From Stackebrandtia endophytica (GTDB lineage: Bacteria > Actinomycetota > Actinomycetes > Mycobacteriales > Micromonosporaceae): 64,000 bases of DNA. A model generated the notes under the pieces. That model was not told the origin of the DNA, ran no database searches, and saw only the letters and a program-made list of their open reading frames with translations. The position numbers and the translations under genes were made by a program. The stretch covers positions 1,488,001 to 1,552,000 of the forward strand of contig NZ_VFOW01000001.1 of the NCBI RefSeq assembly GCF_006716355.1, written 5' to 3'. Positions 24,084 through 39,732 of this stretch are shown here, in pieces. Numbering within the stretch: position 1 is the stretch's first letter; every line of letters starts with the position of its first letter.

Positions 24084-26386
24084 TGGCACGCCTCACAGGT
24101 CTCGGGGTTTTCCAGGGAACAGGCGACCGCTTCCTGCGTCGGGATCGACGCGGTGACGGTGGTCTGGTTGATCCGGGTCGCCGGTCGCGACCGCAGGTAG
24201 TAGGTGGTCTTCAACCCGCTGCGCCACGCATAGGCGTACATCGAGGAGAGCTTGCCGATGGTGGGCGCGGCCATGAACAGGTTCAACGACTGGCTTTGAT
24301 CGATGAACGGGGTTCGTGCGGCGGCCAGGTCGATGAGTGCGCGCTGCGGCAGTTCCCAGGCGGTGCGGAACAGCTGCTTCACCTCGTCGGGAATCCCCGC
24401 GATGTCGGCGATCGATCCTTCGGCGCGGACGATGGCGTCGCGGACCTGTTCGGTCCACAGTCCACGTTCCTTCAGGTCGGCGGCCAGGTAGCGGTTGAGC
24501 TGGATGAACTCACCCGACAGGGTCTCGCGTTTGAACACATTGGTCACCACCGGTTCGGTGCATTCGGCGCAACCGGCGATCGCGGCGATCGTGGCGGTGG
24601 GTGCGATCGCGATCATCAGGGAGTTGCGAAGCCCGTGCTCGGCGACCAGCCCGCGCACCCGCGTCCACTCGTCGGGCTGAGAGATGTCGGCGTTCGGCCA
24701 GTGGTCGACGTGCAGCACGCCCTGCGCCGCCCGAGTGTCCTCATAGGCCGGGTGCGCACCGAGACGCTGCGCCTGGCTGGCGGAGGTTTCGTATGCGGCC
24801 AAAGCGATCTGCTCGGAGATCCGAGTGGACAGCTGTTTGGCCTCCGGCGAGTCGAACGGCAACCGCAGCTTGAAGAAGACGTCGGCCAACCCCATCAAGC
24901 CCAGCCCGATGGGACGCCACTTTTGGTTGGCCTTCTCGGCTTCGGGTGTCGGGTAGTACGACAGGTCGATGGTGCGGTCGAGGAAGACCACGGCGGTGCG
25001 TACCGTTTCGGCGAGCTTCTCGAAGTCGAACCCGTCCTCGGTCACGTGCGCCGACAGGTTCACCGAACCGAGGTTGCACACGGCGGTCTCGGAGTCACTG
25101 GTGACCTCGAGGATCTCGGTGCACAGGTTCGACAGGTGCACCACATTGCCCGGCTTGGCGGTCTGGTTGCAGGTGCGGTTGGACACATCGGAGAAGGTCA
25201 TCCAGCCGTTGCCGGTCTGTGCCAGCGTGCGCATCATGCGGCCGTAGAGTTCGCGCGCCGGCAGAGTCCGCACCGCCTTCCCCGCGGCCTCGGCCGCGAC
25301 GTAGTGACGCTCGAACTCCTCCCCGTAGGTGTCGGCCAGTTCGGGCACGTCCTTGGGGTCGAACAGCGACCACGACTCATCGGACTCGACGCGGCGCATG
25401 AACTCGTCGGGAATCCAGTTGGCCAGATTCAGGTTGTGAGTGCGACGGTCCTCGGAACCGGTGTTGTCCCGAAGCTCCAGGAACTCCTCGATGTCGGCGT
25501 GCCAGGTCGCCAGGTAGACACACGCCGCACCCTTGCGACGGCCGCCCTGGTTGACGGCGGCGACACTGGAGTCCAGGGTGCGCAGCCACGGGACGATGCC
25601 GTTGGAGTGACCGTTGGTGCCTCGGATCAGGGAGCCACGGCTGCGAACCTTCGACCAGGAGATGCCGATGCCGCCTGCGTACTTGGACAACCGCGCGACC
25701 TGGCTGTAACGCTCATAAATGGATTCGAGTTCGTCACGGGGCGAGTCGAGCAGGAAACAGGAGGACAGCTGTGAGCGCCGGGTACCGGAGTTGAACAGGG
25801 TCGGGGAACTCGGCAAATAGGACAGCGTGCTCAACAATCGATACAACTGAGCGGCATCGTCGACCGATTCGGACAGTCCACACGACACGCGGAGAAAGAA
25901 CTGCTGCGGAGTCTCCAACACCTTCCGGGTTTCGGGGTGGCGCAACAGATACCGGTCGTAGACCGTACGCAACCCGAAGTACTCGAAGCGGTCGTCAGCG
26001 GTGGTGTCGATCAAGCGGTTCAAGTCGGCGGCGTTGACCTTGACGAACTCGGCCAGATCGTCGGCGAGCAGGCCCTCCCGGTGGCCCACCACGATCGAGG
26101 ACGCGAAGTCCGTGACGCCCTCCCCGGCGACCTCGACGGCGATCTGGCTGCTGAGCAGCCGCGCCGCCAAACGGCTGTATCCGGGTTCGCGCACCACCAG
26201 GGACGCGGCGATCTCGATGGCCCGACCGCGAAGGTCGGCCTCCTGCGCGCCGGGCCACACCCCGGCGACTACTGGATCGACGACGGCTGCCGGGTCGACA
26301 TCGACCAACCCGTCGGCGAGGCGATGAACCTGTTCTGCGATGCGCTCGACGTCTGCCTTCGGCGGTGTGACGGTCGAAATGCTCAC
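24080..26386 (-). CDS. nrdA: Class I ribonucleotide reductase large subunit, with an incomplete ATP-cone
   Basis: 768 residues from the GTG at 26386, preceded by GAGGGG. Catalytic residues are all visible: SSCFLL (first redox Cys), NLCTE with the thiyl Cys and Glu, the second Cys in TAVCNLGSVN, the tyrosine pair in KTTYYLRSR and the C-terminal CEAC. It reduces ribonucleoside diphosphates to the deoxy forms with NrdB. The N-terminus aligns with the helical part of an ATP-cone (VERIAEQVHRLADGL ... GYSRLAARLL) but lacks the first strand/hairpin carrying the usual K-R-D/N-G nucleotide-binding motif. The longer frame to 26470 does not supply it either, so dATP overall regulation may be lost. Confidence 0.93.
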   Translation of the reverse strand: MSISTVTPPKADVERIAEQVHRLADGLVDVDPAAVVDPVVAGVWPGAQEADLRGRAIEIAASLVVREPGYSRLAARLLSSQIAVEVAGEGVTDFASSIVVGHREGLLADDLAEFVKVNAADLNRLIDTTADDRFEYFGLRTVYDRYLLRHPETRKVLETPQQFFLRVSCGLSESVDDAAQLYRLLSTLSYLPSSPTLFNSGTRRSQLSSCFLLDSPRDELESIYERYSQVARLSKYAGGIGISWSKVRSRGSLIRGTNGHSNGIVPWLRTLDSSVAAVNQGGRRKGAACVYLATWHADIEEFLELRDNTGSEDRRTHNLNLANWIPDEFMRRVESDESWSLFDPKDVPELADTYGEEFERHYVAAEAAGKAVRTLPARELYGRMMRTLAQTGNGWMTFSDVSNRTCNQTAKPGNVVHLSNLCTEILEVTSDSETAVCNLGSVNLSAHVTEDGFDFEKLAETVRTAVVFLDRTIDLSYYPTPEAEKANQKWRPIGLGLMGLADVFFKLRLPFDSPEAKQLSTRISEQIALAAYETSASQAQRLGAHPAYEDTRAAQGVLHVDHWPNADISQPDEWTRVRGLVAEHGLRNSLMIAIAPTATIAAIAGCAECTEPVVTNVFKRETLSGEFIQLNRYLAADLKERGLWTEQVRDAIVRAEGSIADIAGIPDEVKQLFRTAWELPQRALIDLAAARTPFIDQSQSLNLFMAAPTIGKLSSMYAYAWRSGLKTTYYLRSRPATRINQTTVTASIPTQEAVACSLENPETCEACQ

Positions 26387-26712
26387 GATGTATCCCCTCA
26401 TGCGGGCGTCCGCTGGGCACGGAAAAGGCACGCGGACGCGGTGGATTCTGCTGTCCAACCGCAAGATCACGCTTCGGCGCGATCAGCACGAGAGAGCATA
26501 CATGTTGTGGTTGGTCGCGCGCTGGACCCCAAGGTATTGAGAAATCGGCGTGTCTTCACCCGATTGGGCGGCACAATGAGCAGCCTCAACTCACCCGAAC
26601 ACCTGATCGAACCGACGCATCTTCGACCGACGCGCCACCATACGCCCCGCCCACACCACCGCCCCGGCGACGCCCCGATGGGGATGCGCTGCTAATCTCG
26701 TCTAGTCGATGA
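26387..26712. other. Intergenic region between nrdA and tRNA-Arg
   Basis: About 325 nt that should hold the nrdA promoter (minus strand) and the tRNA promoter (plus strand; TAATCT near 26691 is a possible -10). I found no cobalamin-riboswitch core. One imperfect palindrome resembling an NrdR box is listed separately. Confidence 0.4.
26495..26510. promoter_or_regulatory. Weak candidate NrdR box upstream of nrdA
   Basis: Read on the minus strand, CCACAACATGTATGCT matches ACACWATATATWGTGT at 10 of 16 positions, about 110 nt upstream of the nrdA start. It is imperfect and single, whereas NrdR boxes usually occur in pairs. Confidence 0.2.
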
Positions 26713-26787
26713 GCCCCCGTAGCTCAGGGGATAGAGCACCGCCCTCCGGAGGCGGGAGCGCAGGTTCGAATCCTGCCGGGGGCGCCA
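26713..26787 (+). tRNA. tRNA-Arg(CCG)
   Basis: A full cloverleaf can be drawn: acceptor GCCCCCG/CGGGGGC, D-arm GCTC...GAGC, anticodon stem CCGCC/GGCGG with loop CTCCGGA (anticodon CCG at 26746-26748), T-arm GCAGG TTCGAAT CCTGC, and an encoded CCA end. It reads the CGG arginine codon. A rho-independent terminator follows directly. The genes just downstream (ASCH protein, SRA-HNH nuclease) make this a plausible integration hotspot, though no duplicated tRNA end was found. Confidence 0.97.
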
Positions 26788-26795
26788 GACCACCC

Positions 26796-26824
26796 AAAGA
26801 CCGCCACAGGTTGGCGGTCTTTTT
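26796..26824 (+). terminator. Rho-independent terminator of the tRNA gene
   Basis: An 11-bp perfect stem (AAAGACCGCCA / TGGCGGTCTTT) with a 5-nt loop, followed by T residues, begins 9 nt after the tRNA CCA end. Confidence 0.92.
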
Positions 26825-27050
26825 GCTGTTCCAGGGACCATGGCAGGACCCCCGATCGCGGTAACAATCCGACTGACAAGTTCACCCTTTTGAGGAAACT
26901 GCCACGGCCGGACTGCGCCCCCGCACACGCCCATCCCACCACAAGCGAGGAAGGGCACCCTATCCATGCCCATATGCCTCATTGTGAAATCGAGCGCAAC
27001 ACCGTCATATTTCAGTATCCGTGACCAGAACAACCGCCCATAATGGGCAC

Positions 27051-27551
27051 ATGACGAAAAGCCCAGCTGCTCCCGACCTCGCCGCTGCCACTCGCATGTG
27101 GGCGGACTACGCGTCGGCCCGCCCGGAGTCGGTCACCGCCGGACCGGAATACACCGTCGAACACTTCGGGGACTCGGCCGCACTCGCCGACGAGCTATTG
27201 AACCTGGTGCTCTCAGGCGAGAAACGCGCTACGGCTGAACTGGTCTCAGAGTTCGCGGCGCGCGGCGACAACCTCCCCCGTATCGGTTCCCACTGGATCG
27301 CCTGCGACAGCACCGGCACGCCCCGAATCATCATCCGCACCACCGAACTACGCATCGGCGACTTCACCACAGCCGACGCCGCTTTCGCCTTCGACGAGGC
27401 TGAAGGAGATCGCTCCCTCACCACCTGGCAAGAAGGCCATCGCCGCTACTGGCACCGCACCTGCGAAGCGCGCGGAGCCACCTGGTCCGAATCCGACGAC
27501 ATAGTCTTCGAACGTTTCCAGGTGGCCTGGCCGCTAGAACTGGCGGATTGA
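27051..27551 (+). CDS. ASCH domain protein
   Basis: 166 residues from the ATG at 27051 (a GTG at 27021 is possible). The domain shows the ASCH/PUA-like pattern: LVLSGEKRATAELVSEF (G-x-K-x-x-T motif), PRIGSHWIACDSTGTPRIIIRTTELRI, and a C-terminal FAFDEAEGDRSLTTWQEGHRRYW ending in VFERFQVAWPL. ASCH proteins bind RNA or nucleotides; some hydrolyse N4-acetylcytidine. The G-x-K-x-x-T motif is retained. It stands alone in plus orientation between the tRNA and a convergent restriction nuclease. Confidence 0.88.
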   Translation: MTKSPAAPDLAAATRMWADYASARPESVTAGPEYTVEHFGDSAALADELLNLVLSGEKRATAELVSEFAARGDNLPRIGSHWIACDSTGTPRIIIRTTELRIGDFTTADAAFAFDEAEGDRSLTTWQEGHRRYWHRTCEARGATWSESDDIVFERFQVAWPLELAD

Positions 27552-27596
27552 TTGGTTAGTCAGTACGACATCCAAGCACCGGGGAGAATACAACGG

Positions 27597-28535
27597 TCAG
27601 CCTGCCGGATCCTGCGCCAACGAGCGGGCTTTGTTGGCGTCGTAATGAATCCAGGACTCAGCGGGATATGAAACGTGTTTCGCATGGTAGTCCAGGTGCC
27701 TAATGTCAATCTCATGTTCGATCTTGAGGGTATAGATCTGACTACCGGTAGCTACATCAATGACATCCCGGCCATTTCGGATCGAAATAGCCCCCCTGTC
27801 AAACAGGACGTGATGATTCGGACATAGACATAGTAGATTGTCTAGTTCGTCTGGCCCGTTGTGAGGCTCGCCGAGCCCTCTAATGTGTGCTGCCTCAGCG
27901 TACTTCCCCGCCGGGGTCACCAATTGGGTAACACAAATCTGGCATTTAAAGTCATATATCTCCTTGACCTTTTGAGCCAGCTTCGCCTCTCTCAACTGAG
28001 CGAGATACTTACGTTCAATGCGACGAACGGGTGAATTGATTTCTTTCACGGGCACCAATGCGCCAGGACGCTCGTCTAGACGGAGCTCGCCGAACGCTTC
28101 AAGACGAAAGCGCCATGTTAGCCAGCCCTCATTAGTATCACGCCATGCTGCGGTCACTCGATATAGTCCGCTATATCGGTAACCCTGCTTCGGCGAATAT
28201 GGCGTATCCGCCTTGGCTCCCCGGATTACTCGGACAGGCATTTCGGTATCCACGTTTCGCCGCAGTCCGAGATTTCCCCTGACTAGTTCCTGGTCACCGT
28301 TGCGCTTACCGGTATTCGAGTTCCTACCCCCTTCACCGGTATAAACAATCACATCACCATCGTCCTGGTCGGTATAGCCTCCCGCCAAGACCACAGACTC
28401 AGCCCCGTCCTTGCCCCCGACGATACCGGTTTGAGGGTTCCGATGGACGCCTGCTTTATTTGCTTCATCACGGTTTACGAAGGTGGTTCCTGGCGGAAAC
28501 CCGTCGATCTCACCGAAGGTTCGTTTTCTCCCCAT
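27597..28535 (-). CDS. SRA (YDG) - HNH nuclease, probable modification-dependent restriction enzyme
   Basis: 312 residues from the ATG at 28535 (an ATG at 28565 is possible; neither has a clear ribosome site). Residues 5-150 form a YDG/SRA domain (FGEIDGFPPGTTF...GVHRNPQTGIVGG ... YSGLYRV), which binds modified cytosine. The C-terminal HNH domain has CQIC, AEAAHIRGLGEPHNGPDELDNLLCLCPNHHVLFDRG, with Zn cysteines and catalytic His/Asn. This architecture matches type IV-like SRA-HNH endonucleases that cut methylated foreign DNA. Its DNA is clearly less GC-rich than its surroundings (about 50% in 27661-27720), and it sits just past a tRNA gene, both signs of horizontal acquisition. Confidence 0.88.
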   Translation of the reverse strand: MGRKRTFGEIDGFPPGTTFVNRDEANKAGVHRNPQTGIVGGKDGAESVVLAGGYTDQDDGDVIVYTGEGGRNSNTGKRNGDQELVRGNLGLRRNVDTEMPVRVIRGAKADTPYSPKQGYRYSGLYRVTAAWRDTNEGWLTWRFRLEAFGELRLDERPGALVPVKEINSPVRRIERKYLAQLREAKLAQKVKEIYDFKCQICVTQLVTPAGKYAEAAHIRGLGEPHNGPDELDNLLCLCPNHHVLFDRGAISIRNGRDVIDVATGSQIYTLKIEHEIDIRHLDYHAKHVSYPAESWIHYDANKARSLAQDPAG

Positions 28536-28687
28536 AGACGCAACGCTATACATAGATACCGACATGTTTCAATCTGGGTACGCACTCAGCAACATTCAGC
28601 GACTAGCCTTCGACGCTCGCCATCACTCTGTGTACTTACCTCTTCCCGCTTCCTCGGTCGGCATTGCCTTGACCAGGGGGATATCGT

Positions 28688-30523
28688 GTGCGCGTGACCC
28701 CTGAGCCCCCTAGCTCCGCAGAACGGTTTCAAGTTGATTTGCGGGGCGTCGTTGAAATCTTGTCGCGTCATCTGTATTCGAGTCCACGCGTGTTCGTTCG
28801 CGAACTCATTCAGAATGCCCGGGACGCCATCGCCGCGCGTGCGCTCCACGAAGGGGCCGGCGCGGACGGTGATCCGCTAGGCGGTCGTGGGATCCAGATC
28901 CGCGTCGACGGGGACGACATCGTGGTGTCCGATGACGGCCTCGGGTTGACCGGGGAGGAGATGCGGTCCCTGCTGGCGACGATCGGGGCATCCTCCAAGC
29001 GGGAGGACCTGGAGCGGGTCAGGGAGGACTTCCTGGGGCGGTTCGGCATCGGTCTGCTGTCCTGTTTCCTGGTCGCCGACACCATCGAGGTGGTGTCCCG
29101 CAGTGCCCGAACCGTTGATGCGCCCACGATGCGGTGGACTGGACGCAGCGACGGCACCTACGCCATTTCGGACAGTGACGAGGTACTGCCGGCGCCCGGG
29201 ACCCGGGTTCGGGTCAGGCTGCGCCCCGAAGAGGTGATGTGGGCATCGCCACGACGCCTGACCACCCTCGCGAGGGATTTCGCCCGCTACCTCGATGTGC
29301 CCGTCACGGTCATCGACGATTCCGGTGCCCCGGTTCAGATCAGCCTGCGACCGGCACCGGAGGACCTCCGACCCGACGAGGCGGCGGAACTGTGCCGCAC
29401 GGTGTTCGGTTTCAATCCGCTGTCGACCCTGCGACTGGACATCCCGATGCTTGGTGTGCGGGGGTTGGCGTACATCACGCCGCACCGTGAGTCGACGACC
29501 GGCCGGGCCGGTGACCTGGTGTACAGCCGGGGTTTGCTGGTGGCCGAGGACAACACCCAGCTCGCTCCGGATTGGGCGTATTTCGCGCGGCTGATCCTCG
29601 ATGCCGGATCGCTGCCGCTGACCGCGTCGCGTGAGTCGTTCCAGGAGACGGCGCTGACCATCGAGGCGGCGAAGCAGATCGGCACCATGCTGCGCAGTCA
29701 CATCGTCGACCTGTCACGTGCTCATCCGGACACCTTCCGCCGGTTCGTCACCGCACACAGTGTCGGCTTGCGCGCCATGGCCTTGGACGATCCGACGATG
29801 TTCCGGTTCGTCTACGACCACGTGCCGTTCGTGACCTCGCGCGGTGAACGCACTCTCGCCGATCTGTTGGACGGCACCGATTCCGAACCCGGGACCCGGG
29901 TGCTCCACCAGTCCTATACGCAGCGTCAGTTCGACGCCCTCGCGCCACTGGCCAACGCCCAGGGCGTCACCGTCGTCGATTCCTCACATGTTCACGAACC
30001 GCAGATCCTCCAGCGCCTGGTGGAAATCCGGCCGGAAGTGCGATTGGAGACGCTGAGCCTGTCGGTTCTGGTCGCGGGCGCCGACTCACCGACCGACCGG
30101 GAACTGGCTCAAACCGTCGAACGCGCCGCACGCATGGCGCTTCCCGGCCAGGACATCCAGGTGGTGGACTTCGGCACCGAGGCGCTGGTCGGGCTGGAAC
30201 TGCCCGCCGACGACGGCTGGCGCCCCCACTCCGAGCGAAACGGCGGTAAGGCATCGGGGTGGGGAGCGATCTTCGACGAGTTCTCGTCAACGGAGGAGCC
30301 ACGTGGCCCGCAACTGGTGCTCAACGTCTGCTCGCCGTTGGTGCGCTCACTGGGGGAACCACTTCCGGCGCATGTCCGGACTCACGTCGCCAACACGCTG
30401 CGCGTCCTCGCCGTCCTTCATTCGGGTGCGCCCCTACTGTCACACGACCACGTCATACTCGCCGACAGTGTCGCCGCCCTGGTAAAGACCGCGACCGAGA
30501 CAACCGGCCGGGGTCCCCGATAA
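28688..30523 (+). CDS. Divergent HSP90-family protein
   Basis: 611 residues from a GTG with GGGGG about seven bases upstream. The GHKL ATPase domain is recognisable: ELIQNARDAIAAR (N-box), VSDDGLGLT (G1) and GRFGIGLLSCFLVADTIEV (G2), followed by a middle domain with RGLAYITPHRE and SRESFQETALT. The total length is near that of HtpG (about 620), but the sequence is far from HtpG, matching a separate actinobacterial HSP90-like family. The last three residues (GPR) are probably not native: the gene is broken by an insertion 13 nt before its present stop. A second, untouched copy of its 3' end ending REATN lies at 34462-34617 before the TPR-like gene. Confidence 0.88.
   Translation: MRVTPEPPSSAERFQVDLRGVVEILSRHLYSSPRVFVRELIQNARDAIAARALHEGAGADGDPLGGRGIQIRVDGDDIVVSDDGLGLTGEEMRSLLATIGASSKREDLERVREDFLGRFGIGLLSCFLVADTIEVVSRSARTVDAPTMRWTGRSDGTYAISDSDEVLPAPGTRVRVRLRPEEVMWASPRRLTTLARDFARYLDVPVTVIDDSGAPVQISLRPAPEDLRPDEAAELCRTVFGFNPLSTLRLDIPMLGVRGLAYITPHRESTTGRAGDLVYSRGLLVAEDNTQLAPDWAYFARLILDAGSLPLTASRESFQETALTIEAAKQIGTMLRSHIVDLSRAHPDTFRRFVTAHSVGLRAMALDDPTMFRFVYDHVPFVTSRGERTLADLLDGTDSEPGTRVLHQSYTQRQFDALAPLANAQGVTVVDSSHVHEPQILQRLVEIRPEVRLETLSLSVLVAGADSPTDRELAQTVERAARMALPGQDIQVVDFGTEALVGLELPADDGWRPHSERNGGKASGWGAIFDEFSSTEEPRGPQLVLNVCSPLVRSLGEPLPAHVRTHVANTLRVLAVLHSGAPLLSHDHVILADSVAALVKTATETTGRGPR
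30371..30510 (+). repeat. 140-bp perfect direct repeat, left copy
   Basis: Identical over 140 bp to 34462-34601, 4,091 bp apart. It covers the last part of the HSP90-family gene. Sequence similarity ends abruptly at both borders. Confidence 0.97.
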
Positions 30524-30560
30524 CCGCCCAACTGCTGAATTGTTGCCCGAGGTATCGATC

Positions 30561-31075
30561 ATGTCGGCTTTCGACGTTCACCTGGACAGCCTCCGAGAAC
30601 CAGACCATCGAGGGGTGGAAAAACGGGCGAGATCAGGAAGCCATCCCGGAAACCTTCTACCGGGGCACAATGGCACTGGATGCGGCCATGCTCATGCCGG
30701 GGCCCTATGGTCCCAGGTGGCGTCGCTGTTGAACCGGGGCGAATTCGCCGAAGCGTTCCGGCTGTTCGTCCCATCATAGAACTGTCACCGAGCGAGCCGG
30801 CGAAATACCCCATTCGATGCGCGAACCTATGGAGGCACTCGTTCTGATGCCCTTCATCGCCAAGACCAATGATCTGGAGATGCCACACGCGACCATCGAG
30901 ACATATCTCGAACCGAAGTCCAAACCCGCGGCGGCGCCCACGCCAATCTCGCGCTGACCCATGGCGCCGGGTACTCGCAAATCGATGAACAATCGCTCTT
31001 CGACGACCGGTTCGACCGATGGCCCGTCGTACACGAACGCGCCCGCACGTTCGACGCACCCGCAACGGGACAGAC
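30561..31075 (+). pseudogene. Decayed paralog of the TPR-like gene at 34626
   Basis: Joining pieces from different frames reconstructs a relative of the 360-residue protein at 34626: MSAFDVHLDSL (like MPSFYDQLDDM), ETFYRGTMALDAAMLMPG (like EAVYQDAKAIDLVMLMAG), SQVASLLNRGEFAEAFRLFVP (in part; like YQVISLFNRREYAQGLRHFVP), TERAGEIPHSMREPMEALVL (like AERGDEIPDPLRTALETLVL), HATIETYLE (like RTTIEAFLG), LFDDRFDRWP (like AFEDWFDRWA) and HERARTFDA (like EERARAFDA). At least four frame changes and stops separate them, and the middle third of the gene is deleted. It follows the truncated HSP90 gene where the intact gene would be expected. Confidence 0.85.
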
Positions 31076-31252
31076 CACAGGCAAATCTGCTCGCAACCTA
31101 CAGCTTCCAAAACTTCTGAAGCACGGGCGCCTACCCCGCAGGGTAGGCGCCAGCGAGACAAACAGGTCGTCGGTCGGAGGGCCTACGGTCGTATAGCCCG
31201 CGGCGGCTACGATTGAACGCTCACCGTGCTCAGCCTTGAGAAAGTGCGTATC

Positions 31253-34213
31253 GTGATGATTCGTCTCGTTGGACGAGTCGTAGTTGGTGACAACGAACAA
31301 CACGTTTCGGCGCCGAAGCTCGCATGCGTCCTGGCCATCCTGGCCTCCGAACCGGGCTCACCGATCCACCATTTCGACATGATCGACAACATCTGGGACA
31401 GCGAACCACCACGGTCGGCCATCGGCATCCTCTACAGCTATGTCGCCCGGCTTCGGGCGATGCTGCAACGAGTGCCCGGGGCCGAATTGCGATCCAATCG
31501 ACGGCATTACGTTCTCGACGTCGAACCCGAACGGATAGACGTGCATCGAGTTCGCCTGCTCGCGTCGAAGGCGGCCGCCCAACAGAGCGCGGGAAACACC
31601 GCAGCGGCGCTGGATCTGTTGCGGGAAGCCAACAAGCTGGCCGGACACGAGGCGCTCATCGGGATCGGCGGAAAATGGGCCGAGCGCTTCCGTACCGAGT
31701 TTCGACAAACCCGACTCAACCTCCTGGCAGAACGTCACGCGCTGGAGCTTGAGCTTGGACATCATCGAGCCGTCCTGCCTGAGTTGACGACTCTGGTGTC
31801 CCGTGAACCCACTGCGGAACGCCTGGTCGAACAGCTCATGCTGGCCCTGTATCGCGACGGGCGTTCAACCGAGGCCTTGGACGTCTTCACCACAACCCGA
31901 CGGCGTCTTCGTCATCGACTGGGTGCCGACCCGTCACCAAGCCTGCAACGCCTGCACGTTCGCATGTTGCAACAGGACCCGAGCCTTGAGGTGCCGGCTT
32001 CGCCGTCGAAGGTGGCATCTGCCACGCCGCATACGCAGGTGCCGGCTCAGCTTCCCGCCTCGCCGCGCGGTTTCAGCGGCCGCGAGGAGGACGTCTCCGC
32101 GGTCGTCGAACACGCCGGGACCGCAGGCGTCGTTGTCGTGGACGGCATGGCCGGAGTGGGCAAAACGGCCCTGGCGGTGCATGCCGCACACCGGTTGGCC
32201 AACGAATACCCCGACGGGCAGCTGTTCATAGATCTACGCGGTTACGCCGACGGCGTCCCGCCGACAACACCAGGCCAGGCGTTGGCACAACTGCTGCGTT
32301 CGCTTGACGTGGAGGTCCCCGACAACTCACAGGACCGTCCGGCCGCTTGGCGAACTGCTCTAGCGGGCCGCCGCATACTGCTGGTTCTCGACAATGCGCA
32401 CGTCATCGATCAGGTCCTACCGCTGCTCCCGGGCGGATCGGGGTGCGCGACGATCATCACCAGTCGCCGAAAGTTGGTGCACCTGGTGGATGCGTTTCCG
32501 GTGTCGCTGGATGTGATGGAGCCCGATCAAGCCGCCGCGATCTTCGCCGCCGACACCGGCACCGATCCGTCTTCACCCGCGGTACACGGCATCGTAGATG
32601 CATGTGGACGGTTGCCCCTGGCGTTGCGTATTGCGGCGTCCCGCCTGCGTAACCGTCCCTCCTGGACACCCGATGCTTTGCTGAATCGTCTACTTCAAAG
32701 TCGCAGCCTCATACGCGAACTGGACGGCTCTGGCCGCGGCATCGAAGCCGCCTTCAGACTGTCCTATCAAGAGCTGCCGGAACCGGCACAGCGCCTGTTT
32801 CGAACACTCAGCGTCTTCAGCGGTCGCGAGGTCGACCCGCATCGAGCCGCAGTCCTCATTGACGGCGACATGACGGACACCGAAAGCCTGCTGGAACAAC
32901 TCGTCGACGTCCACCTGCTGATATCGTCGGCTCCCGGCCGCTACCAAATGCACGACCTGTTGCGGCAGTACGCCGCCGCGCTCGTGCCCGAAGACGAACG
33001 TCGCCGGGCATGGACTCGGCTCGCCGAGTTCTACATCGCATCCACCTGGCAATCGGTGAAGGCGACCATCCCGTTGCCAGTGAACTGGCCCCGACAACTC
33101 GCAGTGTCCACCACCTCGATCCCAGCGCCGACCGACACGGCCGAGGCGGAGGCGTGGATGCGAAACGAGCTCCCCGTCCTGGAACGTTTGATCATTGAAG
33201 CCTCCGACAACGGCTTCGACGCCCACGTCATCGACCTGTGCCTGCCCACACAGGCGTATCTGATGCACCACGGCGCCGTGCAGGCACGCCTACCGTTGGC
33301 CGAGATCGGTATCGCGGCCACCCGTCGGCTCGGTGCGCGTCCAGCCGAAGCCCGGATGGAGAACTTCCTCGGGATTGCACACGAAGTCCTGGGGCATTTC
33401 GATCTCGCGGAGAACCATCTACTCCGAGCGCTCGAACTGTGGCGACGGCTCGACGATCCAATAGGTCATGTAACCGCATTGAACAACCTGGGCATGGTGG
33501 CTGACCGCCGAGGTCAGCCCCGCGACAGCATCATGTTGACTCACGAAGCCATCGGCGTAGCCCGAGAATCCGGCGCTACGGCGCACCTGGCCCACTTGCT
33601 GTTCAATCAGGCGGGTGCGTTGGCGGTTCAGCGTCGGTTCGACGAATCGGCGGCACATCTGGACGAATGCGACCAGGTTTTGTCTGGTTTGGACAACGAC
33701 CGCCTGTCGATGTGGGCGTGGTCACGTCGCGGCATGCTGCTGGCGTTTTCGGGTGATCCCGACGCAGCGGTTCCCTGGTTCAAGCGGGTCGTGGACTACG
33801 GCCAACGAAACGGCGCCCCGGACCTCACGCAGGTGGGATTGTGGGGGCTGACGGAGTCTCTGCTCATCACCGGCGACCCGACAACGGCTCTGCCTCACAT
33901 CTACCGCCAACTGGAACTGTTGGAACAACTGAACCTCACCGTCAACAGGGCGGAAACACTATGCCAACTCGGTTGGGCTCAGCTCCAGTTGGGACGACTC
34001 GACGACGCACACGCAACACTGACTGGGGCCGTCGAGGCATCCGACAGGATCGGTGCGAAACGTCACCTGGCTCGCGCCCGACGACTGCTAGGCGAAACCC
34101 TGTTGGCCGCAGGTAACCCCGCCGGCCACGGCCACCTACGCCGCGCCATGGAAATGTATGAAGCGGCAGGATATCCCGACGCCGACGATGTCCGCGAGAC
34201 CCTGGAGACCTGA
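31253..34213 (+). CDS. AfsR/SARP-type regulator with NB-ARC ATPase and TPR domains
   Basis: About 986 residues if the GTG at 31253 is used (ATG at 31256 or GTG at 31226 are alternatives). Domains in order: winged-helix DNA-binding domain (residues 3-95, IGILYSYVARLRAML), bacterial transcriptional activator domain (100-245), NB-ARC-type STAND ATPase with Walker A GMAGVGKTAL, Walker B RRILLVLDNA and the GxP-like CGRLPLALRIAASRLR, then a winged-helix segment and TPR repeats (from about 690). Such proteins activate secondary-metabolite or stress genes and are gated by ATP/ligand. It lies entirely inside the segment bounded by the 140-bp repeats. Its target is unknown; no biosynthetic cluster is nearby. 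Confidence 0.9.
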   Translation: MMIRLVGRVVVGDNEQHVSAPKLACVLAILASEPGSPIHHFDMIDNIWDSEPPRSAIGILYSYVARLRAMLQRVPGAELRSNRRHYVLDVEPERIDVHRVRLLASKAAAQQSAGNTAAALDLLREANKLAGHEALIGIGGKWAERFRTEFRQTRLNLLAERHALELELGHHRAVLPELTTLVSREPTAERLVEQLMLALYRDGRSTEALDVFTTTRRRLRHRLGADPSPSLQRLHVRMLQQDPSLEVPASPSKVASATPHTQVPAQLPASPRGFSGREEDVSAVVEHAGTAGVVVVDGMAGVGKTALAVHAAHRLANEYPDGQLFIDLRGYADGVPPTTPGQALAQLLRSLDVEVPDNSQDRPAAWRTALAGRRILLVLDNAHVIDQVLPLLPGGSGCATIITSRRKLVHLVDAFPVSLDVMEPDQAAAIFAADTGTDPSSPAVHGIVDACGRLPLALRIAASRLRNRPSWTPDALLNRLLQSRSLIRELDGSGRGIEAAFRLSYQELPEPAQRLFRTLSVFSGREVDPHRAAVLIDGDMTDTESLLEQLVDVHLLISSAPGRYQMHDLLRQYAAALVPEDERRRAWTRLAEFYIASTWQSVKATIPLPVNWPRQLAVSTTSIPAPTDTAEAEAWMRNELPVLERLIIEASDNGFDAHVIDLCLPTQAYLMHHGAVQARLPLAEIGIAATRRLGARPAEARMENFLGIAHEVLGHFDLAENHLLRALELWRRLDDPIGHVTALNNLGMVADRRGQPRDSIMLTHEAIGVARESGATAHLAHLLFNQAGALAVQRRFDESAAHLDECDQVLSGLDNDRLSMWAWSRRGMLLAFSGDPDAAVPWFKRVVDYGQRNGAPDLTQVGLWGLTESLLITGDPTTALPHIYRQLELLEQLNLTVNRAETLCQLGWAQLQLGRLDDAHATLTGAVEASDRIGAKRHLARARRLLGETLLAAGNPAGHGHLRRAMEMYEAAGYPDADDVRETLET

Positions 34214-34461
34214 TCGGCGGAAGCAACGACGCCGTGCATCGCAGCTCGTTCGTCGGTGGCGAACTGGAAATCGGGGCACACCCCAAGGTTTCCCACGACG
34301 CACACGACTATTGTCCAGACAAACCCGAGCTCCCACCACCAAGGCAGCTCACCGCTGGCACCACCCGACGGACGGCTCTAACACCGCCCCTGCCCACCCC
34401 AAGACCCACCCGCCAGAACCATCTAGACACGACCCTGGTTGGCAAACTCCCGGCGCACCCA
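34214..34461. other. Non-coding spacer before the right repeat
   Basis: About 250 nt without a credible gene; together with the repeat it forms a 412-nt non-coding gap. The frame running through 34234-34617 is the HSP90 tail fragment with random upstream sequence. Confidence 0.5.
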
Positions 34462-34601
34462 CATGTCCGGACTCACGTCGCCAACACGCTGCGCGTCCTC
34501 GCCGTCCTTCATTCGGGTGCGCCCCTACTGTCACACGACCACGTCATACTCGCCGACAGTGTCGCCGCCCTGGTAAAGACCGCGACCGAGACAACCGGCC
34601 G
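34462..34601 (+). repeat. 140-bp perfect direct repeat, right copy
   Basis: Identical to 30371-30510. Recombination between the two copies would delete 4,091 bp and restore an HSP90-TPR operon with an 8-nt gap. Confidence 0.97.
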
Positions 34602-34617
34602 TGAAGCAACCAACTGA
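34462..34617 (+). pseudogene. Orphan 3' end of the HSP90-family gene
   Basis: This fragment encodes the last 50 or so residues of the HSP90-family protein (HVRTHVANTLRVLAVLH onward) and keeps a natural-looking end, TTGREATN then TGA, 8 nt before the next gene's start. It has no start of its own. It is presumably the original end of the gene, detached by the insertion. Confidence 0.85.
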
Positions 34618-34625
34618 GGATCACC

Positions 34626-35708
34626 ATGCCAAGTTTTTACGACCAGCTGGACGACATGTCCGAAGAGAAACTGGCCGAGTACGAACGTGTCACCGACAAC
34701 TTCACCGCCGCCGGTGGCATGGAGGAGGGGCCGGAGCAGGACGCCGCGCTGGAAGCGGTCTACCAGGATGCGAAGGCCATCGACTTGGTCATGCTCATGG
34801 CGGGGGCACGCTGTTACCAGGTGATATCGCTGTTCAACCGCCGCGAGTACGCGCAGGGGCTACGGCATTTCGTTCCCACCATGGACCTGGTGGCGGAGCG
34901 GGGTGACGAGATACCCGACCCCCTTCGTACCGCGCTGGAAACCCTTGTCCTGGCACCTCTCGATGCCATGGTGGACAATCCCGACATTCCGCGCACCACC
35001 ATCGAGGCTTTTCTGGGCCAGCTCGAAACCGAGTCCCGGTCCCGCCCGGCAGCTGCCACCAATTACGCGTTCGCGCGCGCCTTCTGGCATTCGCACACCG
35101 GGGAGCGGTCCGCTTTCGAGGACTGGTTCGATCGTTGGGCCACCAGCGCCTCGGACTGGTGGAGTCAGAACAAGACCATGACGATCTCCATCACCGGCGC
35201 ATTGTTGGACGTCTTCGATCCACAGGAAGCGTTGGCGCATCTGGAACGGCGGTCGCCGACCATGGTCGGCGACCCGGATGACCGCCGCGACGTGTTGGTC
35301 ACCTTGGCCGGTACGCGGTCGATGTGTGGCAACCCCGACCAGGCGTGGAAGGAGTATCGACAGCTCCTGATGGAGATGAATGAGTCGGAGTTGCCGGAAC
35401 TCGTCGAGCGAGCGCGAACTCGATCATTGGTGTGCGCGGCCGTCGCGGCGCCGTGGGATTCGGACGACCCGGCCGTGTCGACGGCGCTGCACCTCATCGA
35501 GTCGGCCGAGAGAGCACAGAAGCTCGACACGGCAGACGCCATCGAGGACACGGCAGCACTGGCCGAGCATCACCTACGACGCGGCGATACCGCGGCCGGC
35601 ACTCGATGGCGGTCGGTCGCGGAGGAGCGCGCTCGCGCCTTTGACGCCCGCAACGGCAACACCTTTTGGAGCACCAGGCTCGCGACGCGCTGGTTCCACG
35701 ACCTGTGA
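34626..35708 (+). CDS. TPR-like helical protein paired with the HSP90-family gene
   Basis: 360 residues from an ATG with GAGGAT at good spacing. The protein is all-helical with no signal or membrane segment; repeated patterns such as ALETLVLAPLDAMVDNPD, PQEALAHLERR and NPDQAWKEYRQLLMEMNE suggest tetratricopeptide-like repeats. In other actinobacteria an HSP90-family protein is followed by a TPR protein of this kind, consistent with TPR cochaperones that bind HSP90. No direct evidence of binding is seen. It is preceded by the detached HSP90 tail, and a ruined paralog sits at 30561. Confidence 0.75.
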   Translation: MPSFYDQLDDMSEEKLAEYERVTDNFTAAGGMEEGPEQDAALEAVYQDAKAIDLVMLMAGARCYQVISLFNRREYAQGLRHFVPTMDLVAERGDEIPDPLRTALETLVLAPLDAMVDNPDIPRTTIEAFLGQLETESRSRPAAATNYAFARAFWHSHTGERSAFEDWFDRWATSASDWWSQNKTMTISITGALLDVFDPQEALAHLERRSPTMVGDPDDRRDVLVTLAGTRSMCGNPDQAWKEYRQLLMEMNESELPELVERARTRSLVCAAVAAPWDSDDPAVSTALHLIESAERAQKLDTADAIEDTAALAEHHLRRGDTAAGTRWRSVAEERARAFDARNGNTFWSTRLATRWFHDL

Positions 35709-35717
35709 GTAGCTGCA

Positions 35718-35746
35718 ACGGGAAGTGCCGGTCGGGCGCTTCCCGT
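35718..35746. terminator. Possible bidirectional hairpin
   Basis: An 8-bp stem (ACGGGAAG / CTTCCCGT) with a 13-nt loop lies between the convergent TPR-like and MFS genes, touching the MFS stop codon. Confidence 0.45.
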
Positions 35747-37245
35747 CATCGTGGTCTGTTCAACAGGACCGGACACAACACGGCGGCAACCACCAGGATG
35801 GCCGCCCCGATCAGGGTGGCGACGCTCGATCCGTCCACAAACGCGGCTTTGGCCACGCCAGACAGGTGAGCCGACGCCCCGGGCGGAAGCTGATCGGCGA
35901 CCGCGAGCGCCGCACCCAGGCTGGAACTGATCACCTCGGCTCCTTCGCCGGGGATGTCGGCGGGAACCGCGTCGAGCACCGCCGATCGATACCAGGCGCC
36001 ACCGATGGAACCGAGTACGGCGATTCCGAGTGCGGCGCCCAACTCGCTGGCCGTCTCCGACAATGCCGAGGCGGCGCCTGACCGACTGGCCGACACCGAC
36101 GCGACCACCACGTCGGTCGCCAGCGTCATCATGGGCGCGATCCCGGCGCCTACCAGCACACAACCGGTGACGGCGACGGCGAGTCCACCCTGGTCGGACG
36201 TGAAACCGAACACGATCATTCCCACCGCGGCGACTGCGGCGCCGCCTCCGAATACGACCGGATGCCCATATCGGCGCACCAACACGGCGGAGGCGACCGA
36301 CATCATCCCAACGGCCACCATGACCGGCAATGTCCATAGTGCTGCATATAGCGGCGACAGCCCGACGACCAGTTGCAGGAACTGGCTGTTGTACAGCATG
36401 AGCGCCACCAATGCAAACATCGCCAGACTGCCGCCGAGGACGGCTCCGCAGAACCGTGGGTTGCCGAAGAGCCGAATGTCGACCAACGGCGCGGCGAGGC
36501 GCCGCTGTCGAAGGAGAAAGGCGATGCCCGCGCCCACACCGATGGCGGCGGCGAGGATCGCATCGGTGGTGACCGTCAGATCGTCGGCGATGGCCTTGAT
36601 GGACCACACGATCGGCAGGATCATCAGAAATGACAGTCCCACGCTGATCAGGTCGAGGCGCCTGGCAACGGGGTGGCGGTATTCCGGAACGAACAGCCAC
36701 ACGGTGATCATGAGCGTCGCCACGACGGGGACGTTGATCACGAAGATGGACCCCCACCAGAACACCTCCAGCAGCAGTCCCCCGACGATCGGGCCCAGTG
36801 AGACGCCGCCGGCCAAGGCCGCCGTCCAGATACCGATCGCCTGGGTCCGTTCAGTCGGATCGTCGAACATGTTCCGAATGAGCGACAATGTGGATGGCAT
36901 GAGGGTGGCACCTCCGACGCCCATGAGGGCGCGCCCGGCTATCAGCACCTCCGGGCTCGGCGCCAAGGCCGCCAACAGCGACGCCACCCCGAAGACCCCC
37001 GCACCGATCACGAGCAGCCGTCGCCGCCCGATGCGGTCACCGATATTTCCCATCACGATGAGCAGTCCGGCCAGCAGGAAGCCGTAGCTGTCCAATATCC
37101 ACAGAGTCTGGCCCGGTGTCGGTGCCAGTTCGTGGGTGATCGTGGGGACCGCCATGTGCAGGATCGATATATCCATTGAGGTCAGAACGACCGGAACCGT
37201 CAGTACCGCGAGCCCCAGCCATCGACGATCGTTCAGGCGACTCAT
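35746..37245 (-). CDS. EmrB/QacA-type MFS drug exporter (14 helices)
   Basis: 499 residues from the ATG at 37245, which has AGGAGGGG just upstream. Fourteen hydrophobic helices can be counted. The DHA2 signatures are visible: TSMDISILHMAVPTI in helix 1, LWILDSYGFLLAGLLIVMG (in part), GNIGDRIGRRRLLVIG in loop 2-3 and SLGPIVGGLLLEVFWW as motif C of antiporters. It should be a proton-coupled multidrug exporter. It is divergent from a TetR gene with an operator in between, so it is likely repressed by it and induced by its substrate. Confidence 0.93.
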   Translation of the reverse strand: MSRLNDRRWLGLAVLTVPVVLTSMDISILHMAVPTITHELAPTPGQTLWILDSYGFLLAGLLIVMGNIGDRIGRRRLLVIGAGVFGVASLLAALAPSPEVLIAGRALMGVGGATLMPSTLSLIRNMFDDPTERTQAIGIWTAALAGGVSLGPIVGGLLLEVFWWGSIFVINVPVVATLMITVWLFVPEYRHPVARRLDLISVGLSFLMILPIVWSIKAIADDLTVTTDAILAAAIGVGAGIAFLLRQRRLAAPLVDIRLFGNPRFCGAVLGGSLAMFALVALMLYNSQFLQLVVGLSPLYAALWTLPVMVAVGMMSVASAVLVRRYGHPVVFGGGAAVAAVGMIVFGFTSDQGGLAVAVTGCVLVGAGIAPMMTLATDVVVASVSASRSGAASALSETASELGAALGIAVLGSIGGAWYRSAVLDAVPADIPGEGAEVISSSLGAALAVADQLPPGASAHLSGVAKAAFVDGSSVATLIGAAILVVAAVLCPVLLNRPR

Positions 37246-37259
37246 CACCCCTCCTATGA

Positions 37260-37292
37260 GTACGGTGTACGCATTCAACGCGTACACCGTAC
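37260..37292. promoter_or_regulatory. TetR-type operator between the MFS exporter and its regulator
   Basis: A perfect 13-bp inverted repeat (GTACGGTGTACGC / GCGTACACCGTAC) around a 7-nt centre lies 15 nt upstream of the exporter start and 44 nt upstream of the regulator's GTG, ideal for controlling both. Confidence 0.85.
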
Positions 37293-37335
37293 CCATAGGG
37301 TTAGAATGACGCAAATCGAGGAAGGACGAAACCGA

Positions 37336-37995
37336 GTGAGCAGGCGTCCACGACACACTGATCCGCTCAGCCGCGACAGGATCGTCACCGCCGCCGTCGA
37401 GGTGGCCGACCGGCAGGGCTTCGAGGCGGTGTCGATGCGACGGGTCGCCGAGCATCTGGGCTCGGGAACCATGTCGCTGTATAGGCACATCGCCGATAAG
37501 GACGAGCTGATCGGGGCCATGGTCGGGCACGTCACCGGGCGCTATGCCTACCCCGACCGCACCGGGATGTCATGGCGGGAATGTCTTCACCAGCTCGCAA
37601 GACGCGATCGGCAGGCGTTTGAGGACCATCCGTGGATGCTTGCGGCAACCGCCACCGTCACACCCGCTTTCGGCGCAGAGTCGTTGGCGTCGATGGAATG
37701 GGCGTTGGCCGCTCTCGAACCACTCGAGCTGTCAACGCACGAGGCCGCGCGCGCCATCATGGTCATCAACAACTACGTACAGGGCAGCACGCGAATCGCG
37801 CTGGGAGACCGCGACTCCGATGCCACCGACGACCTGGGGCAAAACTGGCGGACGAGGCTCGGCGACGTCGACCTAGCCGAGTTTCCGCGGCTGGCCCAAC
37901 TGATCCAACGGCCACCAACCGACGCCGGGGACGACTGGTTCGGTGACGGTCTCGACCTGATTCTGGACGGTATCCAGCAGCGGGCCAACCGCTGA
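37336..37995 (+). CDS. TetR-family repressor
   Basis: 219 residues from the GTG at 37336, preceded by GGAAGGA at nine bases; an ATG at 37306 is possible but has no ribosome site. The HTH is at residues 13-60 (RDRIVTAAVEVADRQGFEAVSMRRVAEHLGSGTMSLYRHIADKDEL, in part), followed by a TetR_C-type ligand-binding domain as in TetR/AcrR regulators of EmrB exporters. It probably binds the inverted repeat at 37260 and represses the divergent exporter and itself. Confidence 0.92.
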   Translation: MSRRPRHTDPLSRDRIVTAAVEVADRQGFEAVSMRRVAEHLGSGTMSLYRHIADKDELIGAMVGHVTGRYAYPDRTGMSWRECLHQLARRDRQAFEDHPWMLAATATVTPAFGAESLASMEWALAALEPLELSTHEAARAIMVINNYVQGSTRIALGDRDSDATDDLGQNWRTRLGDVDLAEFPRLAQLIQRPPTDAGDDWFGDGLDLILDGIQQRANR

Positions 37996-38004
37996 ATCAG
38001 GCGG

Positions 38005-38631
38005 TCACGCCAGGGCCAGCCACGCGAATACGGTGCTCAACCAGAGCCAACCGGGGATGATCATGAGGCGCTGGATCAACCCGGTTTGTGGGTGGTCTTC
38101 CTCCCAGGCCGAACCGAACTTGAGGAACACGGCCACCAGAATCGCCGAGATGACACCACTGTAGACCGCCCAACCGACCATCGAGGACTCCGCGAACCAC
38201 CAGGTCAGGATGAGTCCGGCGGCGGGAAGAGTGGAGAACACCACGGCACCGGCGTAGTCGTGCAGCTCATGGGCCCGGCTGGTGTCCTTCGGGGTACCGG
38301 CCGCAGTTCCCGGCGGGTACTCCCGCATCGGGTCCATCGGCCACCAGCCCGAGGCCACCAGCGCCAACCCGAACGCCACCACCAGGATCGCCGCGATCAC
38401 GCCCTTGACCGACGGTGCGGTCATCCAGCCGATGCCGACGCCACCCAGCGCGATGAGGGAACCGCAGCCGATGAAGTTCACGACCTGAATCCGGCCGCGC
38501 CTCCCCAAGCTCAACGCGCTCACCGGATGGTAGACCGGCCGGTAACCGGGGCGGGTCAACCCGTCCACGGTGAACACGAGTACGAACAGCGCCGCACCGA
38601 CGGCACCGCACCACAGCAAAACGATCCCCAT
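38005..38631 (-). CDS. DUF998 membrane protein
   Basis: 208 residues with six predicted helices and short loops. The pattern DGLTRPGYRPVYHPVSALSLG near the N-terminus, GWWPMDP in the middle and HDYAGAVVF fits DUF998 integral membrane proteins, whose function is not established. AAAGGG precedes the ATG. It is convergent with the TetR gene, only 9 nt away, and probably monocistronic. Confidence 0.85.
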   Translation of the reverse strand: MGIVLLWCGAVGAALFVLVFTVDGLTRPGYRPVYHPVSALSLGRRGRIQVVNFIGCGSLIALGGVGIGWMTAPSVKGVIAAILVVAFGLALVASGWWPMDPMREYPPGTAAGTPKDTSRAHELHDYAGAVVFSTLPAAGLILTWWFAESSMVGWAVYSGVISAILVAVFLKFGSAWEEDHPQTGLIQRLMIIPGWLWLSTVFAWLALA

Positions 38632-38726
38632 ATCGCCCTTTCACTCGATCGATGGGATCCGACGATATGGTGCGGCCACCCCTGCCGACCAGTACCAAAA
38701 GTCACGACACGGTTGTCATGGGGCAT

Positions 38727-39272
38727 TCAGCCGTCGCGCCACTTGATGCCACAGCCCATCGCGGGCTGATGCGGTTCCGGCACCGGCTGTCCGCGACGGA
38801 CCGACTCGACGGCGGCGGTCAGCAGATCCCCGGTGACCGGCACTCCGTTGCCGGGCGTGGAACGGTCGAACGCGCCGCGATAGGCGAGGGTGCGATCAGG
38901 TCCGTAGAGGAAGAAGTCGGGTGTGCACGCGGCTCGATAGGCCCGCGCCACGTCCTGGCTCTCGTCCACCAGGTATGGGAACCGCCAGGCGGCACGCTCG
39001 GCCTGCCGGGCCAATCCGGTCGGGGCGTCGTCGGGGTATGCCTTGGCATCATTGGAACAGACGGCGACGATGTCCACACCGGACTGCTTCGATGCGAACT
39101 CGCCGAAGCCGGTTTCGATGTGCTTGACATAGGGGCAGTGGTTACAGACGAACGCCACGAGCAGAGCCGGATTGGTGAACTCCGACAGCGACCGTCGACG
39201 GCCGTCGAGATCGGGTAGAACGAAGTCCGGCGCCGGGGTTCCCAGCGGCACCATGAACGATTCCAATGCCAT
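38727..39272 (-). CDS. Thioredoxin-fold redoxin (AhpC/TSA-like)
   Basis: 181 residues with GGAGGAGAG before the ATG. The N-terminus PLGTPAPDFVLPDLDG is typical of AhpC/Redoxin domains and the active site is VCNHCPYVKH, with a CxxC after the strand LLVAFV. The later CTPDFFLYGPD contains a conserved cis-proline region. No signal peptide, so it is cytoplasmic. It probably acts as a peroxiredoxin-like thiol reductase. It stands alone. Confidence 0.88.
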   Translation of the reverse strand: MALESFMVPLGTPAPDFVLPDLDGRRRSLSEFTNPALLVAFVCNHCPYVKHIETGFGEFASKQSGVDIVAVCSNDAKAYPDDAPTGLARQAERAAWRFPYLVDESQDVARAYRAACTPDFFLYGPDRTLAYRGAFDRSTPGNGVPVTGDLLTAAVESVRRGQPVPEPHQPAMGCGIKWRDG

Positions 39273-39732
39273 CGTCTGCTCTCCTCCGGATCGATGTGCC
39301 GGTCCCCCTTCGGGTCAACGGTGCGACCGGCGTTGGACATTGCTATCACAGGTCATCGGGTGCGGCGTCACCTACCAACCGACGCGACCTTCGATCACGA
39401 CAACCACAATTCAAGAAAGACCATAAGGGACAATTATCGTCGTCGAATTCCACGACGATGTCGTGATGAGGCGACACCGGATTCTCCACACCGAACCACC
39501 CGATGCGATATGGCGGCTGGTCCGTCGATTGCCCTGCGAGAAAACCGAACCGGTGATGGCTGAAAGCCATGATTGATCCATGATGCACCAATTATCGGTC
39601 CCGACCATAACCTGCGTTGAAGAAGGACAGAACGACAATTTCCGGTGCGGAAGCCGGGTACGGCAAAAGGTGACTCCATATTTCGCCGACCGCACCGACT
39701 CACCAACGCTGTCAGAAAGGACCGGCCCCAAC
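39273..39732. other. Intergenic region upstream of the M15-like gene
   Basis: 460 nt, AT-richer than its neighbours. It contains an 8-bp inverted repeat ATCGTCGT/ACGACGAT at 39436-39459 with an EcoRI-like centre. The region probably holds the promoters of the divergent redoxin and hydrolase genes. No gene or known riboswitch core was recognised. Confidence 0.4.

What the first reader, a model, noticed from the sequence alone, without database searches (positions are those of the whole stretch)
30371..34601. A 4.1-kb segment bounded by a perfect 140-bp direct repeat splits an HSP90-TPR operon
30371-30510 and 34462-34601 are identical over 140 bp, and the match starts and stops sharply. The right copy keeps what looks like the native end of the HSP90-family gene (TTGREATN, stop, 8-nt gap, TPR-like ATG), while the left copy runs into foreign sequence and gains three new residues. 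Deleting one repeat plus the 4,091-bp segment would rebuild an HSP90-TPR operon. The segment carries a dead TPR paralog and an AfsR-type regulator but no integrase or transposase. Perfect repeat identity next to a heavily decayed paralog implies the repeats are recent or kept identical by conversion, so the mechanism is unclear.
Basis: partly seen in the sequence, partly recalled or inferred. Interest (0 to 1): 0.8.

Follow-up and report, generated by a model that had tools for sequence, protein, structure and literature searches.

The report
Duplicated chaperone-partner gene with recombined stub
An old local duplication next to a bacterial HSP90-type gene probably left one dead and one living partner gene, and a short stretch of the HSP90 gene in front of each has been kept or made identical, most likely by gene conversion; this is a tidy but ordinary genome-rearrangement story rather than a new mobile element.

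Summary
The perfect 140-bp repeat is real (30371-30510, 34462-34601) and unusual here. The left junction, called foreign, looks native: leader and start of the dead gene match the partner gene of Candidatus Stackebrandtia excrementipullorum, and the dead gene is that gene's sister in the tree (bootstrap 96), though an AU test does not quite reject the alternatives (p 0.06). The right copy is a 3' HSP90 stub before a living, more diverged partner gene. So two HSP90-partner junctions stand in a row. Best explanation: old duplication (or acquisition) of [HSP90 3' end - partner], death of the native partner, an AfsR-type gene lying between, and recent homogenisation of 140 bp by recombination. Doubled partner genes also follow HSP90 in the relative (inferred across a contig gap) and in two distant genomes. 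No PF00589 integrase match within about 307 kb. Age and direction of homogenisation, and duplication versus acquisition, remain open.

The parts
28688..30523 (+). HSP90-family gene (611 aa), native gene of the locus, ends ...TTGRGPR
   Evidence: NCBIfam NF010683 HSP90 family protein, 475 bits over cut-off 455; 76% aa to S. excrementipullorum
30371..30510 (+). Left copy of the perfect repeat: last codons of the HSP90 gene
30524..30560 (+). 37-nt leader before the dead partner gene; with the gene start it matches the relative's leader (28 of 30 nt from CCGAGG to GACG, counted by eye)
30561..31118 (+). Dead partner gene: start and end recognisable, several frameshifting gaps, an internal stretch of roughly 450 nt missing (from the two BLAST pieces; the alignment places this gap at the end instead); most likely orthologue of the relative's partner gene
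31226..34213 (+). Intact AfsR/SARP-type gene (995 aa: BTAD, NB-ARC/AAA, TPR)
   Evidence: Pfam; NCBIfam (best match SARP-family AfsR 499.6 bits, far below the curated cut-off of 1430)
34214..34461 (+). 248-bp spacer; best match elsewhere in 5 genus genomes is a 29-30-nt piece in this genome (E 0.004); no HSP90 remnant found
34462..34601 (+). Right copy of the repeat: 3' stub of an HSP90 gene
34602..34617 (+). Own end of the stub (...EATN, stop), 8 nt before the next start codon
34626..35708 (+). Living partner gene (360 aa), 52% aa to the relative's partner gene; no family in Pfam, NCBIfam or PADLOC

Best explanation
The locus is a duplicated HSP90-partner junction. The left HSP90 gene with the dead partner after it is the vertical, native arrangement. 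A second unit, [3' end of an HSP90 gene - partner gene], lies downstream: either an old partial tandem duplication or, less likely, a copy from a related lineage. The native partner died and the second one is intact. An AfsR-type gene came to lie between them. The 140 bp shared by the two HSP90 ends is a tract homogenised recently by recombination between the copies (gene conversion, or crossover between sister chromosomes), so it is younger than the duplication. Shown: two copies, a native-looking left junction, homologous partner genes after both, no segment in the relative. Inferred: order of events, conversion, direction.
For: Left leader plus gene start match the relative's (75% over 69 nt, E 1e-10). 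Dead gene and relative's gene are sisters: bootstrap 96, shared derived sites 13 against 4 and 4. The two partner genes are only about 63% identical where they align while the neighbouring 140 bp have no difference, which bounds their divergence below 2.1% at 95%. Each repeat copy is followed, 37 or 8 nt after its stop, by a partner gene in the same orientation. The partner gene is repeatedly tandem in this operon: S. excrementipullorum's contig ends in an exact 87-bp second copy of the leader and gene start, and another contig of that assembly starts inside a copy 96.3% identical over 401 bp; distant genomes G216 and G228 also have two. HSP90 identity to the relative is no different in the repeat (70% nt) than just before it (64-70%), so the left HSP90 end itself is unremarkable.
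Against: The AU test leaves the other two topologies at p 0.063 and 0.062, just inside the 95% set, on 403 gap-free columns of the best-aligned part of the dead gene. On those columns the living gene is nearly as close to the relative's gene (70.2%) as the dead one is (73.4%), and dead-relative is the closest pair in 87% of 2000 resamplings. Over all dead-gene columns of the looser alignment, which include its badly aligned end, the living gene is slightly closer to the relative's (66.4% against 64.9%). Homology just outside the repeat is not significant: at the upstream edge 7% of random pairs do as well, downstream up to the ATG 20% of shuffles and 44% of random ATG-upstream stretches; so a diverged halo round the tract, the classic mark of conversion, is shown only by the partner genes further on. 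No HSP90 remnant is seen upstream of the stub. Only one close relative has the operon.
Confidence: 0.55

Rival explanations
1. One reading: the native operon was HSP90 - 8 nt - living partner, and a 4.1-kb block (repeat, dead partner, AfsR) was inserted, for example as a circle carrying the HSP90 3' end that integrated by a single crossover in that end.
For: Gives two perfect copies with sharp edges and explains recency directly; removal of one copy would give an uninterrupted operon.
Against: The supposed insert begins with a leader and gene start like those of the relative's native operon, and the dead gene, not the living one, groups with the relative's gene (AU p 0.06 for the alternatives). 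No PF00589 match in the segment or within about 307 kb; no inverted repeat of 20 nt or more bounds the segment (shorter ones not looked for).
Confidence: 0.15
2. Foreign acquisition: [HSP90 3' end - living partner] came from a related lineage by homologous recombination in the HSP90 end, with 140 bp as the crossover or conversion region, and the native partner then died.
For: The living partner is only 52% identical to the relative's while HSP90 is 76%; the AfsR neighbour is likewise 53% and its best match in the relative lies elsewhere, and its GC3 (0.711) is lower than that of HSP90 (0.792).
Against: No closer relative of the living partner than S. excrementipullorum's turned up in 354 family genomes, 397 order genomes or 394 class genomes, the last two being samples. 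GC3 and GC of the living partner (0.801, 0.645) are like those of HSP90 (0.792, 0.664).
Confidence: 0.2
3. A recent separate copy of the HSP90 3' end was placed in front of an already tandem second partner gene (for instance by template switching), so the repeat is simply young and no conversion is needed.
For: Sharp edges, no significant homology directly outside them; tandem partner genes without a stub exist.
Against: Needs the copied end to land in the right orientation 8 nt before the start codon of a partner gene.
Confidence: 0.07
4. Assembly artefact.
For: Reads not available.
Against: One-contig genome; both copies have distinct flanks on both sides; 140 bp is short for an assembly problem (my judgement).
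Confidence: 0.03

Closest known systems
Partial tandem gene duplication with concerted evolution by gene conversion (general knowledge)
   Same: Two paralogous units in direct orientation; one stretch identical while the neighbouring paralogous genes are diverged
   Different: Only one 140-bp tract is identical; the upstream part of the second HSP90 is missing and a regulator gene lies between
Tandem partner genes after HSP90 in S. excrementipullorum (L033 with L079) and in G216, G228
   Same: HSP90 followed by two partner genes (in S. excrementipullorum inferred across a contig gap)
   Different: No HSP90 stub and no regulator seen between them there
Integrative elements that insert in a gene's 3' end and restore it (recalled, not searched)
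   Same: Direct repeat of a gene's 3' end flanking a segment
   Different: No tyrosine integrase found, repeat far longer than a usual attachment core (recalled), left junction native-looking

Membership tests
Partial tandem duplication with gene conversion | Homologous units in direct orientation at one locus | tested here: met
   Repeat plus partner gene twice
Partial tandem duplication with gene conversion | A tract of much higher identity inside an otherwise diverged duplication | tested here: inconclusive
   100% over 140 bp against about 63% in the partner genes, but homology directly at the two edges is not significant
Partial tandem duplication with gene conversion | Duplication older than the identity of the tract | tested here: inconclusive
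   Tree supports it (bootstrap 96); AU p 0.06 for the alternatives
Integrative mobile element | Recombinase gene in the element | tested here: not met
   Tyrosine integrases only: nearest of 8 PF00589 matches at 1,211,064-1,211,279 of the genome, about 307 kb away. The one long gene in the segment is AfsR-type. Serine recombinases and transposases were not searched
Integrative mobile element | Empty site in relatives matching the element's removal | tested here: not met
   Relatives lack the segment, but the closest one has the dead gene's lineage after HSP90, and 0 of 4 measured junctions is the 8-nt one
   No Pfam family at E<=0.1, no NCBIfam or PADLOC family at E<=0.001; the fold prediction did not finish, so a TPR-like fold stays possible
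HSP90 family protein (NF010683) | Score over the curated cut-off | tested here: met
   475.3 bits against 455; Pfam HSP90 PF00183 just under its cut-off, 23 against 24.4

The most novel reading that the evidence does not exclude
The identical HSP90 ends are kept identical because they recombine often: the cell population would then be a mixture in which a 4.1-kb circle with the AfsR-type gene is lost or regained, switching the HSP90 gene between its present end and a direct operon with the living partner.
Probability: 0.06. Interest if true: 0.6.

Novelty: new member of a known kind. Interest (0 to 1): 0.3.

Why it matters
It points to a conserved HSP90-partner gene pair, not described in the papers listed by my searches, whose partner is repeatedly duplicated and perhaps replaced. 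It also warns that sharp perfect repeats round a segment need not mean an insertion. If conversion is confirmed it is an example of a short tract kept identical inside an old bacterial duplication.

Tried and rejected
Mobile-element reading: no PF00589 match near, no inverted repeat of 20 nt or more bounding the segment, no Rfam family other than a tRNA-Arg at 26713 in 26000-40000 and no other tRNA in the window. Hidden HSP90 remnant upstream of the stub: none found by nucleotide comparison. Extension of the repeat on the left with a 6-nt gap: looked suggestive by eye, but 7% of random pairs do as well. Extension on the right to the start codon: not significant. Origin of the AfsR-type gene: its best match in the relative (53%, reciprocal best) lies beside an ATPase gene; the ATPase orthologue in this genome is at 1,015,188-1,017,179 (71%) and none of the 33 AfsR-type matches listed lies near it, so the gene may have moved, or the two may be different paralogues. 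The tblastx listing was cut and too noisy to use. Promoter scan of 30300-34700: none found, 0.6 expected. Foreign donor for the living partner: none found. Structure prediction of the partner protein never finished (last try). tRNA-Arg at 26713 tested as an island end: one 14-nt match elsewhere in the window, taken as chance.

Literature: seven searches; I saw only the listings and abstract starts (0, 3, 1, 10 of 36, 8 of 47, 1 and 1 papers listed) and opened no paper. None of the listed titles names this locus or this HSP90-partner operon; the held library lacks most subscription journals.

Full report
What is there. The repeat is exactly as described: 140 of 140 bases identical at 30371-30510 and 34462-34601, 4,091 apart. 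The whole genome (one contig, 5,663,490 bases) gives two matches at E<=0.001, these two. It is the only direct-repeat family of 40 nt or more reported in the window. In 400 kb sampled from the rest of the genome (20 stretches) the longest perfect direct repeat at least 1 kb apart is 44 nt. So it needs an explanation.

The neighbours. The gene at 28688-30523 is an HSP90 family protein by NCBIfam (475 bits against a cut-off of 455). The gene between, 31226-34213, has BTAD, NB-ARC and TPR domains and resembles AfsR, far below the AfsR cut-off; this genome gives 32 matches to it, itself included.

The operon in relatives. Of 41 genomes searched with the HSP90 protein, 27 have some match, this genome included, but only one in the genus is close: G003, 76% identical. 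Its contig gives the same alignment values as L033, Candidatus Stackebrandtia excrementipullorum, so I take them as one assembly. The partner gene follows HSP90 directly in L033, in two Saccharopolyspora (L034, L035) and in G163. Distant partners (23-26% identical) follow it in G216, G228 and G237. Weak partner-model matches sit just after HSP90 matches in G006, G009, G018 and G023 (places compared). Strong matches to the partner model are rare: 3 of 354 family genomes at E<=1e-20 and 4 of 397 order genomes, this genome included each time; with the single protein, 1 of 394 class genomes at E<=1e-10, this one itself.

Which junction is native. The dead gene is 71.6% identical to the relative's partner gene over 416 nt, but 62.6% to the living gene over 417 nt. 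A tree of 403 gap-free columns joins the dead gene and the relative's gene with bootstrap 96. Polarised sites favour this 13 to 4 and 4. Against it, the AU test leaves the two other trees at p 0.063 and 0.062. In plain identity the dead-relative pair (73.4%) is only a little ahead of the living-relative pair (70.2%), and is the closest pair in 87% of resamplings. Over the looser alignment of the whole dead gene the order is even slightly the other way (64.9% and 66.4%). A dead gene gathers changes freely, so plain identity understates its kinship; the shared derived sites and the leader are the better guides. I conclude that the left junction is most likely the native one and that the living partner gene is the newcomer or the older paralogue.

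Age. The living gene is 52% identical to the relative's in protein, against 76% for HSP90. The dead gene still shows more changes at third codon positions against the relative (50 of 133, against 33 of 136 and 25 of 137). So part of its divergence was gathered while it still worked, and it need not have been dead for long. On its own branch the changes are more even (16, 18 and 24 at positions 1, 2, 3), as expected of a gene that has been dead for part of the time.

Mechanism. Both repeat copies are followed, after their stop codon, by a homologous partner gene (37 nt and 8 nt on). Two HSP90-partner junctions thus stand in a row, which is what a partial tandem duplication, or a second operon whose HSP90 gene was lost, would leave. 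The relative shows that such doubling happens here: its contig ends in an exact 87-bp second copy of the leader and gene start, and a second contig of the assembly starts in a 96.3% copy of the gene (15 differences in 401 bp). That second contig carries some of the same genes further on as the window (near 39.6 kb and 51-58 kb). That the two contigs adjoin is inferred. In G216 and G228 two partner genes follow HSP90. If the duplication is old, the perfect tract must have been homogenised later, by gene conversion or an equivalent crossover. The absence of significant homology right at the tract's edges (7% of controls do as well upstream, 20% and 44% downstream) keeps this an inference, and a young separate copy of the HSP90 end remains possible.

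The AfsR-type gene. Its reciprocal best match in the relative (53%) is beside an ATPase gene. In this genome none of the AfsR-type matches listed lies near the ATPase orthologue. So the gene may have moved to the present place, or both may be remnants of a larger set of paralogues. Nothing ties it to the repeat.

No sign of a mobile element. The nearest of 8 tyrosine-integrase matches is about 307 kb off; other recombinase families were not searched. No inverted repeat of 20 nt or more bounds the segment. The only tRNA in the window is at 26713 and has no repeated end beyond one 14-nt match.

Judgement. A real, well-described anomaly with a probably ordinary explanation. The unusual part is the contrast between a perfect short tract and diverged neighbours; the most novel reading, a recombining switch, has no direct support.

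Noticed in passing
27597-28565 (-): SRA plus HNH protein (Pfam SAD_SRA 135 bits, HNH_2 44 bits), of the kind recalled from restriction enzymes for modified DNA; the NCBIfam match to a phosphorothioate-DNA restriction enzyme is below its cut-off (54 against 180). It lies between a tRNA-Arg and the HSP90 gene.
   Followed up: partly
26713-26787 (+): tRNA-Arg (CCG), the only tRNA in the window; one 14-nt match to its end elsewhere, so no clear sign of an island boundary.
   Followed up: yes
L033:5295-5381 and L079:1-401: S. excrementipullorum seems to carry two nearly identical partner genes in tandem after HSP90; the contigs break inside them.
   Followed up: partly
G000:C1:1015188-1017179: Orthologue of the ATPase gene that in the relative stands next to the closest AfsR-type gene; here no listed AfsR-type match is near it.
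   Followed up: partly
35746-37530 (-) and 37306-37995 (+): Divergent MFS efflux-like transporter (NCBIfam matches shown are all below their cut-offs where I compared them) and TetR-type regulator, with a 23-nt inverted repeat at 37253-37299.
   Followed up: no
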